Shown here: positions 52,440 through 60,319 of the stretch, one piece after another
How the letters are laid out: the number at the start of each line of letters is the position of its first letter
Numbering within the stretch: position 1 is the stretch's first letter
DNA from: Puccinia triticina
Taxonomy: Eukaryota > Basidiomycota > Pucciniomycetes > Pucciniales > Pucciniaceae
Length of the DNA: 64,000 nt
Direction of reading: 5' to 3'
NCBI RefSeq assembly: GCF_026914185.1
Contig: NC_070559.1
Coordinates: 868,001-932,000 of the forward strand
The notes under the pieces: model-generated
Database searches by the model: none
The model's input: the letters and a program-made list of their open reading frames with translations, nothing else
What the model was told of the DNA's origin: nothing
Position numbers and translations under genes: made by a program

Positions 52440-53271
52440 TGTGGGTACCTGGTGTCCGTCAGCAGGTACCTGCTGGACCTCAACAGGTACCTGTCGGCGG
52501 ATACGGGTGCGGGTGCGGGTGTCCACCATTTTGTGGGACAGGTACCCGCCATATACCCCCCACATCACCAGAGGCTTCCCGAGAGGGCTTCCTCTCGGCA
52601 AGCTGGAATACAAACACCAGCTCGCCGAGAGGGCTTCCTCTCGGCGGGCTGGTATATATACACCACCTCGCCGAGAGGGCTTCCTCTCGGCGGGCTGGTA
52701 TATATACACCACCTCGCCGAGAGGGATCCCTCCCGCCGGGCTGGTACACATACACCAGCTCGCCGAGAGGCCGACAGGGCTTCCTCTCGGCGGGCTGTTG
52801 TATTTATTCCGGCTCGCTGAGGCCCGTGAGGAATCCCTCTCGGCGAGCTGGCGTATTTATTCCAGCTCGGCGAGGCCCGAGAGGAATCCCTCCAGCCCGC
52901 CGAGAGGAATTCCTCTTGGCGAGCTGGTGTATGTGTACCAGCCCGTCGAGAGGAATCCCTCTCGGTGAGCTGGTGTATGCATTGTATACCAGCCCGCCGA
53001 GTGGAAGCCCTCTTGGCGAGCTGGCGTATATGTACCAGCCCGCCGAGAGGAAGCCCTCTCGGCGAGCTGGTGTTTGTATTCCAGCTTGCCGAGAGGAAGC
53101 CCTCTCGGGAAGCCTCTGGTGATGTGGGGGGTATATGGCGGGTACCTGTCCCACAAAATGGTGGACACCCGCACCCGCACCCGTATCCGCCGACAGGTAC
53201 CTGTTGAGGTCCAGCAGGTACCTGCTGACGGACACCAGGTACCCACAAAGGGGTACCTGGTGCCATCTCTA
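52440..53271. mobile_element. Foldback element, hierarchical palindrome, hAT-like right end
   Basis: 52440-53247 is one large palindrome: TGTGGGTACCTGGTGTCCGT at the left is mirrored by ACGGACACCAGGTACCCACA at the right, with ~190-bp near-perfect outer arms. The centre is a run of about ten units (GCCGAGAGGGCTTCCTCTCGGC plus CAGCTCG or CTGGTAT spacers), each itself a small palindrome. To the right it continues GGTACCTGGTGCCATCTCTA (to 53271), the same kind of terminus (TAGAGATGG inverted) as the MITE at 27090. The left terminus lacks this segment. Apparent long open frames on both strands encode the same peptide because of the symmetry and are not genes. Confidence 0.83.
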
Positions 53272-53848: not shown

Positions 53849-53960
53849 TGTGGTGGTTTGCGATAGGAATGCGTGTGTATTCCGCAAACTACCATGCCGG
53901 GAACTCATGCTCCGGTGTCTAGTGAGCTGCGGATGGTAACCCAGTAACTGGGTTACAACA
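53849..53960 (-). repeat. Copia 3' LTR (112 bp)
   Basis: Minus-strand start TGTTGTAACCCAG, end ACCACCACA. It matches 60208-60319 with one visible difference (CCGGG against CAGGA near the middle). Confidence 0.9.
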
Positions 53961-53980
53961 CCCCCCCCTCACCTAGACAC
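53961..53980 (-). other. Copia polypurine tract
   Basis: The plus strand reads CCCCCCCCTCACC immediately inside the 3' LTR, so the minus strand has GGTGAGGGGGGGG, the plus-strand DNA primer site of LTR retrotransposons. Confidence 0.8.
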
Positions 53981-54089
53981 CGGCCCGGGTACAAACGTAG
54001 ATGGAGGAAACAACAAGAGCGGAAAGAAAAAAAACAACAAAAGAGAGGTGAATGGGGCATAATAAGGACCAGAGACATAGAAAAACAAA

Positions 54090-57000
54090 TTAACCGCCTA
54101 GAAGACGGGCCCGCAAGCGTTCAAAAGGTTCCCTTGTCAATGGTTTAGTGAGAATGTCGGCTAACTGCTCAGTTGTAGGAACCCATGTGAGATCTGTCTT
54201 GTTTTCAAAGAGTGCCTGATTAGTGATATGAAATTCACGGTCAGTGTGCCTAGCTCTTTTGTTTGAGGCGTCATCTGTGCTAATCTTGACGGCAGATTGA
54301 TTGTCACAGTACAGATTACCCTTAATGTCCACGCGCAGGATGTCCTTGAGCAAATGTCTCACCCACAGAACCTGCCGCGTAGCAATCCCAAGGGCCATGT
54401 ACTCTGCCTTGCAAGTGGATGCCGCCACCGTCGCCAGCCCCCGCGAAACCCACAAGATCGGGCAGCCTAAAAATGTTAAAAAAATCCCATAGGTAGACTT
54501 TGAGTGTTCGCCGCCCCAAGATGCATCACAATAACACCTCAGTGATTTCGCAGAAGTGTCCGGCCGAAGAGTCATGGTGCGGTCTCTCGACTGAGCTAAG
54601 TAATTCACCAAGTGGCGCACTCCTTTCCAGTGCGTTGGACCAGGAGAGGCCGAGAACCGTGCTAAAAAGTTCACTGCAAACGCTAAGTCTGGTCTAGTAC
54701 CTACGGCTAGGTAGCTGAGCGACATGACAACAGACAGGTAAGCAGTCGACGTGCTGGGATCACCGACTTGTTCAGAATTGATGTCAAGGTTAGCTGGCAA
54801 TGGGGTCTTCGCGGTGGTGAAACCATCCCAGTGAGTCTCCAGAATCTCCTTTACTAGTTTACGTTGGTCAAGTAAAAAGGAATCTGCGGTTCTCACGATA
54901 TTGACACCCACAATCGAATCCAACTTGTCGCTTTATTTGATTTCCAGCTTCCCTTCCAGCGCTGCTTCGAGTTTCTGTAGCGTTACGACAGAATCGCCCG
55001 TCACAATCCCGTCGTCGACGTGAATCCAGATTACTCCGGTTTTCTCCGCGTCCTGTAAAACATAAAGGCTAGAGTCATAGTGACTTGCCGAGTACCCTAG
55101 TCCCAGTAAGATGCCCTTCAGGTGGAGCCACCAGCAACGCACCGCCTGGCGCGTTCCATACAATGCCTTTTTTAAACGGAGACCTTCTCCTGTCTTCAAA
55201 GCCATGCCGTCCGGTGGTCGTATCCAAATCTCCTCGTTGATGTCAGATTTCAGATAGGCCGCTACAAAGTCAAAGGAGTGTACTGGCCATTTGTAGGCAG
55301 CTGCTATGGTGAGTACTAAGCGCATAGAGACAAAGGTGGCAGTAGGGGCAAAGGTCTTCTTGAAGTCCACACCCTCTATCTGCGTGAATCCTTTAGCTAC
55401 ATACCGGGCCTTGTACCTGGTCACTGTCCCATCTGCAGCCGTCTTCACCGCAAATACCCAGCAACCGTCAAGAGGCTTCTTTGTGGTGTCCATGAGGCGG
55501 ACTTCCCAGACTTGCTTCCTGTCGAGATTCTGTAGTTCCTCCTCGACAGCAGCCTTCCACTGTTCCCAGTGATCGGACTTGAGGGCCTGCTTGTAGGTCT
55601 TTGGTACCCCTGCTGAATAGAAACCGCAGTTCCTAATCACGTCGTCCACAAGTTGTTCTTCACGTTCAAAGGCCAATTCGTGTGAGAAATCTCCTATGCA
55701 AACTGAATTAGCTTCGGGGTCAATTCGAATGGAAGACGTCAAAGGCTTCTTTAGTTGTTCCAAAGAAAGCATGGGCTTTCCAGGAAAGTCCTCAAAGGTT
55801 GCCCACGCAGACGAGACCAGTGAGTCTGATTCGGGAACCCAAAACATCCATCCCTTGCTGTCTCCCAAATGCGCTATAATGTGGGCTTTAAATGCACGGT
55901 CAGCTAGTTTAGTTCTCTTTTCTGGCGGTTGAAGAACGTAAGCTACTCCTCCAAAAATCCTAGCGACATCCAACTGCGGTTTTTGTCTGAAGAGTGCTTC
56001 GAAAGGAGTGACCTCTCCACTTGATTTGTTGGGTAGCCGGTTGAGAGTCCACGAGGCCCACTCAAAAGCAAAGCCCCAGAATCGTTGCGGAAGAGAGCTG
56101 TCACCGAGGACGGTGCGACCCATTTCAGACACAGTGCGATTGAAGCGCTCTACCACACCGTTTTGGTAGTGATGATATGGGAGGTTTTGTTCCGCCCTGA
56201 TTCCTTTACTCGTCAAAAAAGTGGCTAGGGCATTGTTAGCAAACTCACCGCCATTGTCGCTACAAAGAACTTTGACTCTCAGGTCAGTCTGCTTTTCCAA
56301 CCTATTTATGGTGTCGAGAATATGTTTGTTAGCCTCACTCTTAGCAGCTAAAATCTTTATCTCATTATACCCCGATCCCACATCTTTGATTGAAAGTACA
56401 TACCGGCCCTTGTGGTATGTCGCAACCGGGAAAGGGCCCATAAGATCCACGTTGAGCACTTCCAACGGACCTACCGTTCTATTCGAACTTCCCAACACAT
56501 TTGTCCTGGTACTCTTGTGTATGGCACATACCGGGCAACGCAGCTGGCCTGGCGGCATCTTCTCCGGCAAGCCAAAAGCTGCCTTCTGGTTGATGAGCTT
56601 CCAGATTACCCGCAGACTCGCGTGTACGAATATCCTGTGCCACATTAAAAGAGTTGCCTCGTCGGCGGTCAAATCCTCAGGCCGCCAGGTGAAACTAGGA
56701 GAAGGCTCCATCGGTGACACAAACAGATCTCCCGGTGTGCTCTTTGCTGCTAATCCCGAAGGGCAAAATGTAGGCTTAACATTGGTACTATCAGTTGTAT
56801 CATTGCTCTCATTCGATTTCAAAAGGTTGGAGGACGGAGACACAGAAGAAGAACTTGGGGCATATGCAATGGGAACAGGAGACGAAGGGAGGTGAGCAGC
56901 ACGGGATATGACAGGGAAAGGAATATGGCATGGGGGAAGTCCGGCTGGGGTAGGGGGCAGTGGTTTCGGTAGGCACCATTTGTTGGAGTTCGGCCAGAAC

Positions 57001-57877
57001 GGGCAGGAAAATAGAAGTTTCCAGTCCGAGGAGAAGAAGTCAAAAGAATCTTCTACGTGGTTGTAGAGAAAGCGGGAGTTAGCTTTCCGCAGGGCTGCCA
57101 GCGATATGAGGGTGGACGAAGCCCGCTCACAGTAGAGGACACCCTTAAGAATCACGATTTGCCCATCCCGGGTCGGAAAAGAGAGGTCCCCAGTCCCTGT
57201 GATAAAGGAACCGTCGCCCTTAGTGGCTACACGGAGAGGAATTGGACGAGAGAGAGGTTTAAAAGAGCTGAGTGCGTACCTCTTGGAAGTCAGGTGGTGT
57301 GTCGCGCCAGTGTCAATCACTGGGTCATCACCGTCGCCCACTGACAACTGACTGAACCGTGGCACAAAACCTTGTTCCAGGCTGTCATCCACCGCACCGA
57401 TCTCAAGCATCCTTGAGGTGGTCTCCTGACCAGGATGTTGTTGAGACATGCCGTTCAAAACCGGCTGTTGGAACTGATCAGTGAGGCTGGGAGGTGCCAT
57501 TGCCGGTTGTGCAATGTTGGCACGGGACGTCGGGGTTTGTCGTTGACCCTGGGTCGGCAGGGAATTCTGGCGGTAGTCAGGTCGGTACATGTCGGGCTGC
57601 CCTGCTGCTTGTTGGGTGTAGCTTCCAGGTGTCGGTGGGGCGTAGTTTGAGGTCGGAACCCCGAAATTCTTGGTGGTGTAACCCGGGGGCGTGACGATGG
57701 GATACCACGCCTGGAAATTGCCTGGTGCCATCATCGGGGGAGCAGCGGGCGCCAGTTGGTTGTTCGGTCGCAGAGGTCTGGCTGGGAAGGAAGGACGACC
57801 GGGGCGTCGAGAGGACTGAGGGGGTTGGCTGAAATCTCGTCGACGAGGAAGGTTGCATTCACTGAGGAGGTGATCGA
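54090..57877 (-). pseudogene. Copia Pol: protease, integrase, RT, RNase H (one stop)
   Basis: Open from the Gag junction to TAA at 54933-54935, then open again in the same frame to 54090. Protease VIDTGATHH near 57320. Integrase with MWHRIFVHAS and CPVCAIH zinc ligands and a DDE core (NVDLMG, CSDNGGEF, NGVVERFN). RT with KARYVAKGFTQ, FDFVAAYL and catalytic HVDDG near 55015. RNase H with YCDASWGG, CKAEYMA, LYCDNQSA and DILTKPL. One nonsense codon between the RT and the RNase H regions is the only damage seen, so the copy is young or was recently active. Confidence 0.92.
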
Positions 57878-58445
57878 CAGTTCCAGCATTGCAGCCCAGT
57901 CGTCGCTAAACCTTCTACCATTTCTGGCACCTCCGGCCACACGTCTGGGTCGAAGAATTCCATTGCCGGACTGACGGATTGGTCGAAATCTGGTCTACCT
58001 TGCTGTTGAGTTGAAACCGAGAATGCCGTGGAGGAAGGTGCCGATAGATCCAGCTGGTGCTTCGCGATGTCGATGTGCTTCAGAATCTGATCTGCAGACG
58101 TCGCCAGTTTAGCCTTCGTCCTGCTGGAACTCGCAAAGTCTTGCTCAATTCTTCGGTCCACCTCTCTCCGAAGATCCGATCCGGCTTCCAGGGAGGATTG
58201 AAGGGCGAGACCACCTATGCTTTCGCGGTCGAGATCCAAACCGAGGGAGTGAAAGTTGTCCAGAAGTTCGAGGATTTGGGCGATGGTCTCGGAGCTACTC
58301 GAGTAGTCTGACATTTTGATGTTCTTCAGTTTCTCCCACACAACCATTTGTTCGGCTCTGCTTGCGGTGTGAAAACAGCTACGAAGGTGAGTGTACATGT
58401 CAAAGCAGGTGTTCTGGCGGAGCATACTGCTGTCTACCGTAGCCA

Positions 58446-58660
58446 TGTAGAGACTGTAAAATGAAGATGTGTCTGGTGAGAGTCGAACTCACGACCTCAG
58501 CTATGCTGAGACACATACTAGAGTGCTGCCTTTACCAACTAGGCTACAGACGCTTGTGGCTGCCAGCTGGGTGGTTGGTTGGTAGTGGTCATGGGTCGAT
58601 CCAACAGCCCTCCATACTGTGGTGATACATCATGGTAGCAGACTAACAGACAACTCAACA
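58446..58660 (-). repeat. TRIM 3' LTR (215 bp)
   Basis: Minus-strand TGTTGAGTTGTCTG ... CAGTCTCTACA. The 422-bp-offset partner is 58868-59082. Confidence 0.9.
58469..58553 (-). ncRNA. tRNA-like sequence in TRIM 3' LTR
   Basis: The minus strand has acceptor-like ends GCGTCTG / CAGACAC (one mismatch), an A-box TAGCCTAGTTGG (58535-58546) in a D-arm-like GCC...GGC stem, a CTCAGC-ATA-GCTGAG stem, and a perfect T-arm (GTGAG TTCGACT CTCAC) containing the B-box (58480-58490). The anticodon stem does not fold canonically, so a working tRNA is unlikely. A retained internal Pol III promoter is possible. Confidence 0.6.
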
Positions 58661-58669
58661 CCCCCCCTT
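58661..58669 (-). other. TRIM polypurine tract
   Basis: The plus strand CCCCCCCTT abuts the left LTR, so the minus strand reads AAGGGGGGG, the same type of tract in the same position as in the surrounding copia element. Confidence 0.8.
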
Positions 58670-58855
58670 GCTACATGATGGGAAGTGGGGATTGACCCCA
58701 AGAGAGAGTGGGAATGAGACCCAGGAAAGATGATCAGCGTAGGTATTGAACCCGTGATCTAGATGTAGGCTTATAGGGGTTTGCGTGGTCTTACAAGTAA
58801 GCATTCACAAATTCATCAAGTCTCTATTGTAAGCGAGTAACGCTCAGGTAGCCCT

Positions 58856-58867
58856 GGGCTCATAACC
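58856..58867 (-). other. TRIM primer-binding site, half-tRNA(iMet)
   Basis: The minus strand directly after the 5' LTR reads GGTTATGAGCCC, the complement of GGGCUCAUAACC in the anticodon stem-loop of initiator tRNA-Met. Copia and Ty5 are known to prime from this cleaved tRNA half. Confidence 0.85.
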
Positions 58868-59082
58868 TGTAGAGACTGTAAAATGAAGATGTGTCTGGTG
58901 AGAGTCGAACTCACGACCTCAGCTATGCTGAGACACATACTAGAGTGCTGCCTTTACCAACTAGGCTACAGACGCTTGTGGCTGCCAGCTGGGTGGTTGG
59001 TTGGTAGTGCTCATGGGTCAATCCAACAGCCCTCCATACTGTGGTGATACATCATGGTAGCAGACTAACAGACAACTCAACA
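58868..59082 (-). repeat. TRIM 5' LTR (215 bp)
   Basis: Near-identical to 58446-58660; differences seen are in the right third (GTGGTCATGGGTCGATCC against GTGCTCATGGGTCAATCC). Confidence 0.9.
58891..58975 (-). ncRNA. tRNA-like sequence in TRIM 5' LTR
   Basis: Identical copy of the element at 58469-58553, with A-box, B-box and long variable-arm-like stem. In the 5' LTR a Pol III start here would give a transcript running into the TRIM interior. Confidence 0.6.
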
Positions 59083-59556
59083 AGCCAGAAGGAGGGACCG
59101 GCCAATTTGTTCCTGAACACCATCCGAGCACGATTTTGAGAACCACGCTCCATTGCCGAACACCTCTCAAGCTCGTTCACCCATCATTAGATCCCACTGA
59201 ACGAAGTTGGACCCACTGGGCTGCAGCTTGTCGGTGTCCGACATTCGGGATGTTGCGTGCGCCACAATCTGTCCGGGAGATCGACCATGATATAGAGACT
59301 GGATCGCCGCTTCTTCAAGCCATCGGTTGACTTCATTGGCGGTGTACATTGGGACATCGCCGTCGTCTTCATCTGCCGGCGGTGCTCGATTCGCAGGAGG
59401 AGCGTTCTGATTCGTGCGGGAAGTAGGTCGTCTGTGAGAGCTGAGGCGTCGATTTTGCATGGTACCCTGCGTGTTAGAGGTAAAGGCAGTCGGCTGAGGG
59501 CCCCACGGGTTGGTGACAGGATCGGGGGAATGGGTGTTGCGGATTGGTGAGGACAT

Positions 59557-60195
59557 AGGAACGGGAAAAAAAATCGGGGAAGGGAAAAAACGGATAGGGA
59601 GAAATGAAGGAAAAGGGAAGAAAAAGTATATATATGGGATAGAGTGTAGGATGACGGGAGAAGGAAGGTTGAACGGAGTTAATAGGCAATTGAAGGTTTG
59701 GATAAGGTATTTGGGTAGATGAATGTAGGTTGGGGTCAGAGAAGTAGGAGAAAGAAAAAACTATGGGGATGTGCCAAGCCGGAGGTTGGTCGAAACACTG
59801 CAGATACTCTCCGCACTATTTTTTCACCTGTTCCTAAGTCAGCCCCTTTGGTACCGGGGTATGAGGTTCGAGTTAGCTAGGCTCTGGCTGACTCAGGGCG
59901 GGTTACTTTCTAGGTTGGATCGCTATCCACAGAGTTGTGAGGAAGTCAATGTGAGATGAGGGAACCAATAGTCAAGAGAAAAATAACGAGACAGAATATA
60001 ACGGGGAAAATAGATATCTTCGGATGACGATACGGCCCTACGCTGGGCAGAGATGAGAAGAGCGACCCTACGCTGGGTGATGAGATGAGAAGGAGAAGTA
60101 TAGCCCTACGCTGGGCAGTTCAAAAAGAGTAAAAACAAAAGGAAAAGAACCAAACGCGACTGATGAGTTCGCTTCACACTCAAAATTGGAGATGA
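59557..60195 (-). other. Copia 5' leader
   Basis: Untranslated region between the primer site and gag. The word CCTACGCTGGG recurs three times at about 60032, 60066 and 60105, and the plus strand at 59560-59640 is very purine-rich. Confidence 0.5.
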
Positions 60196-60207
60196 GGGCT
60201 CATGACC
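60196..60207 (-). other. Copia primer-binding site, half-tRNA(iMet)
   Basis: The minus strand after the 5' LTR reads GGTCATGAGCCC, one base different from the TRIM site and from the complement of the initiator tRNA anticodon region GGGCUCAUAACC. Confidence 0.75.
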
Positions 60208-60319
60208 TGTGGTGGTTTGCGATAGGAATGCGTGTGTATTCCGCAAACTACCATGCCAGGAACTCATGCTCCGGTGTCTAGTGAGCTGCGGATGGTAACC
60301 CAGTAACTGGGTTACAACA
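60208..60319 (-). repeat. Copia 5' LTR (112 bp)
   Basis: TG...CA, paired with 53849-53960 and followed by the CATCC target duplication. Confidence 0.9.

What the first reader, a model, noticed from the sequence alone, without database searches (positions are those of the whole stretch)
58446..59082. TRIM retroelement whose LTRs carry a tRNA-like sequence
A 637-bp element has all cis-parts of an LTR retrotransposon (215-bp TG...CA LTRs, AGCCA target duplication, half-tRNA-iMet primer site, polypurine tract) and no coding. Each LTR contains an 85-nt tRNA-like stretch with A-box, B-box and perfect T-arm in the sense direction. Plant Cassandra TRIMs carry 5S rRNA in their LTRs; a tRNA-bearing fungal analogue would be new to me. 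Pol III transcription could replace the usual Pol II LTR promoter. The first three statements are seen; the Pol III role is inference.
Basis: partly seen in the sequence, partly recalled or inferred. Interest (0 to 1): 0.88.

Follow-up and report, generated by a model that had tools for sequence, protein, structure and literature searches.

The report
Known tRNA-carrying miniature retroelement (Helenus)
A short jumping element of a rust fungus carries a tRNA-like stretch in both of its ends; this type was published in 2024 as Helenus, but copies fused to bigger Copia elements hint at the machinery that moves it.

Summary
Window 58446-59082 is a 637-bp TRIM on the minus strand: 215-bp LTRs (2 differences), TSD AGCCA, half-initiator-tRNA PBS, PPT, no coding found. 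Each LTR holds an 86-nt tRNA-like stretch (RF00005, 42.9 bits; 0 of 2000 shuffles). The family is large: 478 LTR-core and 109 leader matches; 37 of 45 full copies read have exact TSDs; 106 of 113 LTRs spanning the stretch get a tRNA call.

It is not new. Kojima 2024 (PMC10886601) named such TRIMs Helenus, 113 families in rusts. P. triticina LTR-1_PTrit fits in copy number, internal length, tRNA type and TSD length.

New relative to that paper's text: four copies are chimeras with Copia-type LTRs, joined exactly at the shared PBS. Two (L071, L020) have one TSD around the whole chimera. Three foreign LTRs belong to one lineage, the fourth to another. This is what strand jumps between cDNAs in one particle would leave.

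Pol III transcription remains inference: the only TTTT lies just after the B box in both LTRs, so a full-length transcript must read through the first.

The parts
58441..58445 (.). target site duplication AGCCA (3' side in sense)
59083..59087 (.). target site duplication AGCCA (5' side in sense)
58868..59082 (-). 5' LTR, 215 bp, TGTTGAG...CTCTACA
58446..58660 (-). 3' LTR, 215 bp
58890..58975 (-). tRNA-like stretch of the 5' LTR (A box 58957-58968, B box 58901-58911)
   Evidence: RF00005 42.9 bits; boxes read from the sequence, box definitions recalled
58468..58553 (-). tRNA-like stretch of the 3' LTR (A box 58535-58546, B box 58479-58489)
   Evidence: RF00005 42.9 bits
58880..58883 (-). TTTT tract after the B box in the 5' LTR, possible weak Pol III terminator; with its twin at 58458-58461 the only TTTT in the element's sense strand
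   Evidence: a TTTT within the last 40 nt in 113 of 113 spanning LTRs
58856..58867 (-). primer-binding site GGTTATGAGCCC, complementary to the initiator-Met anticodon arm
   Evidence: tRNA identity from Kojima 2024 and recall, host tRNA not read
58661..58669 (-). polypurine tract AAGGGGGGG
53849..60319 (-). surrounding Copia element in which the TRIM lies: 112-bp LTRs 53849-53960 and 60208-60319 (1 difference), TSD GGATG, PBS GGTCATGAGCCC; pol frame 54933-57734; TRIM lies between frames 57859-58446 (weak gag match) and 59167-59556 (no Pfam match)

Best explanation
The element is a Helenus TRIM, very probably a copy of the P. triticina family LTR-1_PTrit. It has no coding capacity that I could find and is moved in trans by Copia machinery. 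Shown: anatomy, copy number, TSDs, a PBS shared with Copia elements, and chimeras with Copia-type LTRs joined at the PBS. Inferred: its RNA is made by Pol III from the A and B boxes in the 5' LTR, reads through the weak T4 tract there and ends at the same tract in the 3' LTR, giving a terminal repeat of about 100 nt for the first strand transfer. The RNA enters Copia particles, is primed by the anticodon half of initiator tRNA, is completed from the G-rich PPT and inserted with 5-bp TSDs. Inside such particles the plus strand of one element sometimes jumps to the PBS of another, which leaves tandem arrays and Copia/TRIM chimeras.
For: Anatomy. Family size: 478 matches of a 24-bp LTR core (up to 2 mismatches) and 109 of a 35-bp leader word (up to 3), 0 for the reversed controls. 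TSDs: identical in 38 of 46 full rows, that is 37 of 45 elements, as L006 and L036 are one; three of the eight misses are units of tandem arrays. Chimeras: L071 (foreign 5' LTR 347 bp, TSD GGAAT around the whole), L030 (305 bp), L013 (279 bp; after the TRIM LTR a new PBS and a 380-aa open frame with Copia gag PF14223, E 2.3e-16), and L020 (TRIM LTR, PBS, 400 bp foreign internal, 98-bp foreign LTR, PBS, TRIM internal, TRIM LTR, TSD GGTGG around the whole). The first three foreign LTRs align, begin TGTTGAG like the TRIM and share a 44-54-bp internal duplication; the L020 one is 95% like a sequence about 1.3 kb behind a Copia RT in L068. LTRs 73-84% like that of L071 occur in five same-strand pairs 5.1-6.1 kb apart among 40 scored hits. 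PBS GGTTATGAGCCC in 6 of 20 Copia upstream stretches. Kojima 2024 infers Copia dependence from PBS likeness.
Against: No transcript data. The T4 tract is in the 5' LTR as well, so a Pol III transcript may stop early. Box B is off consensus and its core GTTCRANNC is intact in only 74 of 113 LTRs. No sign of selection on the boxes beyond the rest: CpG decay in box B looks like that at CpG 63-64 outside the tRNA part. No Copia with a TRIM-like leader was found, although Kojima expected one. The foreign LTRs come from two lineages, so a single helper is not shown. Of six L071-like LTRs whose downstream side was read only one (L119) is followed by this PBS and an open frame.
Confidence: 0.8

Rival explanations
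1. An ordinary Pol II-driven TRIM whose LTR once captured a tRNA or tRNA-derived SINE; the tRNA part is now passive.
For: Box B is off consensus; C56 (LTR position 176) is substituted in at least one LTR of 21 of 45 elements; the T4 tract follows the B box in both LTRs.
Against: A core in 111 and tRNA call in 106 of 113 spanning LTRs. C56 changes look like decay after insertion: 5 elements changed in both LTRs against 4.05 expected if independent (one gap and one G counted as changes), while the variant at position 48 is always shared by both LTRs. Kojima 2024 reports box conservation across many Helenus families.
Confidence: 0.3
2. The chimeras arose in the chromosome (recombination, or a Copia-type piece landing at the PBS), not before insertion.
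For: L020's insert can also be read as TG...CA flanked by GGTTA. L027 shows a TRIM that landed about 50 bp before a Copia-type PBS, so nesting near PBSs occurs. TSDs could not be checked for L030 (3' LTR cut short) and L013 (far end not read).
Against: L071: one TSD brackets Copia-type LTR and TRIM LTR; a chance 5-mer match in those flanks is 0.0022. L020: the match to the PBS goes on for nine bases past GGTTA, which a plain insertion does not explain. L071, L030 and L013 have no GGTTA before the foreign LTR and no TRIM LTR upstream in what was read (399, 1195 and 1221 bp).
Confidence: 0.25
3. The LTR stretch is a tRNA gene that supplies working tRNA.
For: RF00005 score and cloverleaf.
Against: Anticodon loop not canonical, ARAGORN cannot settle the anticodon; Kojima 2024 finds most fungal Helenus tRNAs unlikely to function.
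Confidence: 0.04
4. A SINE or a chance direct repeat rather than an LTR element.
For: tRNA-like promoter part.
Against: TG...CA LTRs, PBS, PPT, 5-bp TSDs, hundreds of matches.
Confidence: 0.01

Closest known systems
Helenus, family LTR-1_PTrit (Kojima 2024, PMC10886601)
   Same: TRIM with tRNA-like LTR in a rust, PBS for the initiator anticodon arm, 5-bp TSD. The paper gives 529 LTRs, 144 internals and 426 predicted tRNA-Thr-AGT for this family; here 478 LTR-core and 109 leader matches and 145 first-look internal candidates, internal 207 bp against 198+12, ARAGORN type Leu or Thr with AG.
   Different: The Repbase sequence is not held, so identity rests on numbers and anatomy. The paper's main text has no occurrence of 'chimer' or 'strong-stop'.
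Cassandra (plants; as described in Kojima 2024)
   Same: TRIM with a small-RNA Pol III promoter in its LTRs
   Different: 5S rRNA instead of tRNA; Pol III transcripts are reported for it
Ajax (nemerteans, same paper)
   Same: TRIM with small-RNA promoter, 5-bp TSD
   Different: 5S rRNA fragment, PBS for tRNA-Leu
Drosophila Copia and yeast Ty5 (cited in Kojima 2024)
   Same: priming at the anticodon region of a tRNA; for Ty5 the initiator-Met tRNA
   Different: autonomous, coding

Membership tests
Helenus | TRIM under 1000 bp, no coding | tested here: met
   637 bp; no ORF of 90 aa or more lies inside (shorter ones not listed)
Helenus | tRNA-derived sequence in both LTRs | tested here: met
   RF00005 above the gathering score in both
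Helenus | PBS and PPT next to the LTRs | tested here: met
Helenus | fungal form: 5-bp TSD | tested here: met
   exact in 37 of 45 elements
Helenus | fungal form: moved by Copia | tested here: inconclusive
   four chimeras and a shared PBS support it; no activity test
Helenus | same sequence as Repbase LTR-1_PTrit | not testable with these tools
   Repbase and the supplement are not held
Helenus | Pol III transcription | not testable with these tools
   no RNA data; also unproven in the source paper
Cassandra | 5S rRNA sequence in the LTR | tested here: not met
   only tRNA reaches an Rfam gathering score in the window
SINE | no LTRs, copied by target-primed reverse transcription | tested here: not met
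   LTRs, PBS, PPT, 5-bp TSD

The most novel reading that the evidence does not exclude
This Helenus family and Copia elements that share its PBS are reverse-transcribed in the same particle: plus strands jump at the PBS from Copia to TRIM (L071, L030), from Copia to TRIM and on to a Copia internal region (L013), and from TRIM to a Copia-type unit and back to TRIM (L020). Tandem TRIM arrays are the like-with-like product. The lineage with TGTTGAG LTR starts, donor in three of four, is the leading helper. A leaky T4 terminator, passed once and used once, would define the terminal repeat of a Pol III-made LTR element.
Probability: 0.5. Interest if true: 0.6.

Novelty: already known. Interest (0 to 1): 0.4.

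Why it matters
The class is known, so the finding adds no new kind of element. The chimeras matter more: Kojima 2024 ties fungal Helenus to Copia by PBS likeness and one shared leader, while a chimera with one TSD around it is direct genomic evidence that both elements met before insertion. It also makes testable how an element with the same terminator in both LTRs gets a full-length RNA. Hundreds of tRNA-like LTRs inflate tRNA gene counts in rusts, as Kojima 2024 shows.

Tried and rejected
Helper search by leader likeness: 20 Copia upstream stretches (chosen from 150 scored RT hits out of 1760 candidates) show no likeness to the TRIM internal beyond the first 14 bases. Exclusion patterns gave no Copia with a TRIM-like leader. 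The C9 hit matched 14 bases only. These patterns need exact short words, so a diverged leader would be missed.

Selection on the boxes: variants shared by both LTRs against variants in one LTR, in 45 elements, gave no clear excess constraint (non-CpG sites with shared variants: U3 9 of 105, tRNA part 3 of 80, U5 1 of 22). The sample is biased: copies were fetched for likeness to the window copy or its PBS word, and only LTRs aligning end to end were counted, which lowers variation near the ends.

L020: I first read it as an insertion with TSD GGTTA; searches show a PBS-to-PBS unit instead. The same recheck found L029, where a whole TRIM is followed by GA and GGTTATGAGCCC; the longest frame found there is 101 aa, it was not searched against Pfam, and the TSD of L029 fails, so I leave it open.

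Junction counts: one search lists seven TRIM internals with a non-T four bases before the PBS: L071, L030, L013, L077 (a TRIM LTR with a small deletion, not a chimera) and three unread (C1:4804426, C3:7132159, C14:1447192). It misses L020, and (one place, L013) misses L020 too, so these are lower bounds. One search gave 29 places with CTCTACA before another leader; 17 of the 21 shown share one leader and probably belong to another family whose LTR ends alike.

Full report
What is there. Window 58446-59082 holds a 637-bp element with 215-bp LTRs (two differences), TSD AGCCA, PBS GGTTATGAGCCC and PPT AAGGGGGGG, all oriented on the minus strand. Each LTR carries an 86-nt tRNA-like stretch in the same direction: RF00005, 42.9 bits, E 9.1e-06 over the whole window, the only matches there over a gathering score. 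ARAGORN draws a cloverleaf with an extra arm and an uncertain anticodon, Leu or Thr, and calls none in 2000 dinucleotide shuffles.

Family. The genome (122.8 Mb, 18 contigs) has 478 matches of a 24-bp LTR core with up to 2 mismatches and 109 of a 35-bp PBS-leader word with up to 3, with 0 for the reversed controls. In 62 loci with an internal region (63 internal rows; L006 and L036 hold the same element) 46 rows have two complete adjoining LTRs, and 38 of the 46 have identical 5-bp flanks, that is 37 of 45 elements. Of the eight misses, L107, L108 and L109 are units of tandem arrays (the outer flanks of L107/L108 are both TCCTG); L003, L035 and L075 differ by one base; L029 and L032 do not match. 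LTR pairs differ at 3.0 of 215 positions on average, gaps counted, and 8 of 45 not at all: a young family, in a sample chosen for likeness.

tRNA part. 63 loci give 125 distinct LTR pieces, 106 of them complete; 113 align across the tRNA part. Of these 113: A core in 111, B core GTTCRANNC in 74, TTTT near the end in 113, ARAGORN call in 106. The 12 other pieces are truncated or broken by inserts. Change in box B is mainly C-to-T or G-to-A at the CpG of positions 176-177. At 176 five elements are changed in both LTRs against 4.05 expected if the LTRs decay independently, while the G/A variant at 48 is always shared by both. So box B decay mostly follows insertion. The CpG at 63-64 outside the tRNA part behaves alike, so this is no proof of selection.

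Surroundings. The TRIM lies in a Copia element on the same strand: 112-bp LTRs 53849-53960 and 60208-60319 with one difference, TSD GGATG, PBS GGTCATGAGCCC, and a pol frame with RVT_2 (E 2.4e-41). The frame on one side of the TRIM has a PF14223 match below the cut-off (E 0.00066); the frame on the other side has no Pfam match, so that the TRIM sits in gag is inferred from position.

Chimeras with a foreign 5' LTR. Three loci have TRIM internal and TRIM 3' LTR but a foreign 5' LTR ending exactly at the PBS: L071 (C11:440638-441401), L030 (C16) and L013 (C1). L071 is bracketed by GGAAT. L030's TRIM 3' LTR stops at position 209, so its TSD cannot be checked. L013 runs on from the TRIM LTR into GGTTATGAGTCCC and a 380-aa frame, open to the end of the locus, with a Copia gag domain (E 2.3e-16). 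The three foreign LTRs (347, 305, 279 bp) start TGTTGAG like the TRIM, align with each other, share a 44-54-bp internal duplication and have no tRNA call. LTRs 73-84% like that of L071 form five same-strand pairs 5.1-6.1 kb apart among 40 scored hits of 232 candidates. The downstream sides of six such LTRs were read: one (L119, C10) has GGTTATGAGC and an 87-aa open frame without a Pfam match; the other five do not have the PBS there.

A fourth chimera. In L020 the order is TRIM LTR, PBS, 400 bp of foreign internal ending in GGGGGAG, a 98-bp foreign LTR ending TTTTTACA, PBS, TRIM internal, TRIM LTR, with GGTGG at both outer ends. The foreign LTR is 95% like a sequence about 1.3 kb behind the RT of a Copia locus, L068, and unlike the other three donors. 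It is the mirror of L013.

Reading. Plus-strand DNA that ends in a PBS copy can pair with the PBS end of another minus strand and go on through that element. One jump gives L071 and L030, two give L013 and L020, and jumps between TRIMs give tandem arrays. This is inference; recombination of free cDNAs would look similar. For L071 and L020 the single TSD puts the joining before insertion. With donors from two lineages, one exclusive helper is not shown.

Transcription. The only TTTT of the sense strand lies at LTR 200-203, after the B box, in both LTRs. If Pol III starts near the tRNA-like part, the first tract must be passed. Four Ts are weak for fungal Pol III (recalled). No RNA data were available.

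Known or new. Kojima 2024 (PMC10886601; parts 1-4 and 6 of 6 read, part 5 not; passages) described this class as Helenus, 113 families in rusts, including LTR-1_PTrit with 529 LTRs, 144 internals and tRNA-Thr-AGT. The present family fits it. The main text has no occurrence of 'chimer' or 'strong-stop', and its one use of 'terminator' concerns Cassandra.

The recount replaced 114 LTR rows by 113 distinct LTRs; the box B coordinates moved by one base; L020 became a chimera; the L119 result is now given as one of six. The odds of the novel case are kept at 0.5: the added chimera supports shared particles, while the second donor lineage weakens the single helper, which the statement no longer claims.

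Noticed in passing
53849-60319 (-): Young Copia element with unusually short 112-bp LTRs, half-initiator-type PBS with one change and G-rich PPT; its LTR begins with an inverted repeat GTAACCCAGTTACTGGGTTAC.
   Followed up: partly
52579-53108: Tandem array of about 46-bp units, each with an inverted repeat (CCGAGAGG...CCTCTCGG).
   Followed up: no
L071, L030, L013 foreign 5' LTRs: These Copia-type LTRs hold a 44-54-bp direct duplication; the first copy is followed by CAG-GTTAGT or CAG-GTAGGT, like a splice donor.
   Followed up: no
L107/L108 (C5:1245267-1246358) and L109 (C6:52128-52798): Tandem LTR-internal-LTR-internal-LTR arrays of the TRIM; the C5 array has TCCTG on both outer sides. The second C6 unit (internal at C6:52778) was not read.
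   Followed up: partly
L029, around 1923-2010: A whole TRIM is followed, after two bases, by GGTTATGAGCCCAG and a foreign leader; may be a further PBS junction.
   Followed up: partly
L027, around 1972 in sense: A TSD-flanked TRIM lies about 50 bp before a Copia-type LTR end and PBS, so it probably landed inside a Copia LTR.
   Followed up: no
G000, 29 places: An element group whose LTR also ends CTCTACA before GGTTATGAGCC but with leader CGCGCTGT (17 of 21 shown); probably another family with the same end.
   Followed up: no
C3:1875864-1876402: A Copia-type LTR match ends 216 bp before a TRIM internal, so it may abut a TRIM 5' LTR directly; not read.
   Followed up: no
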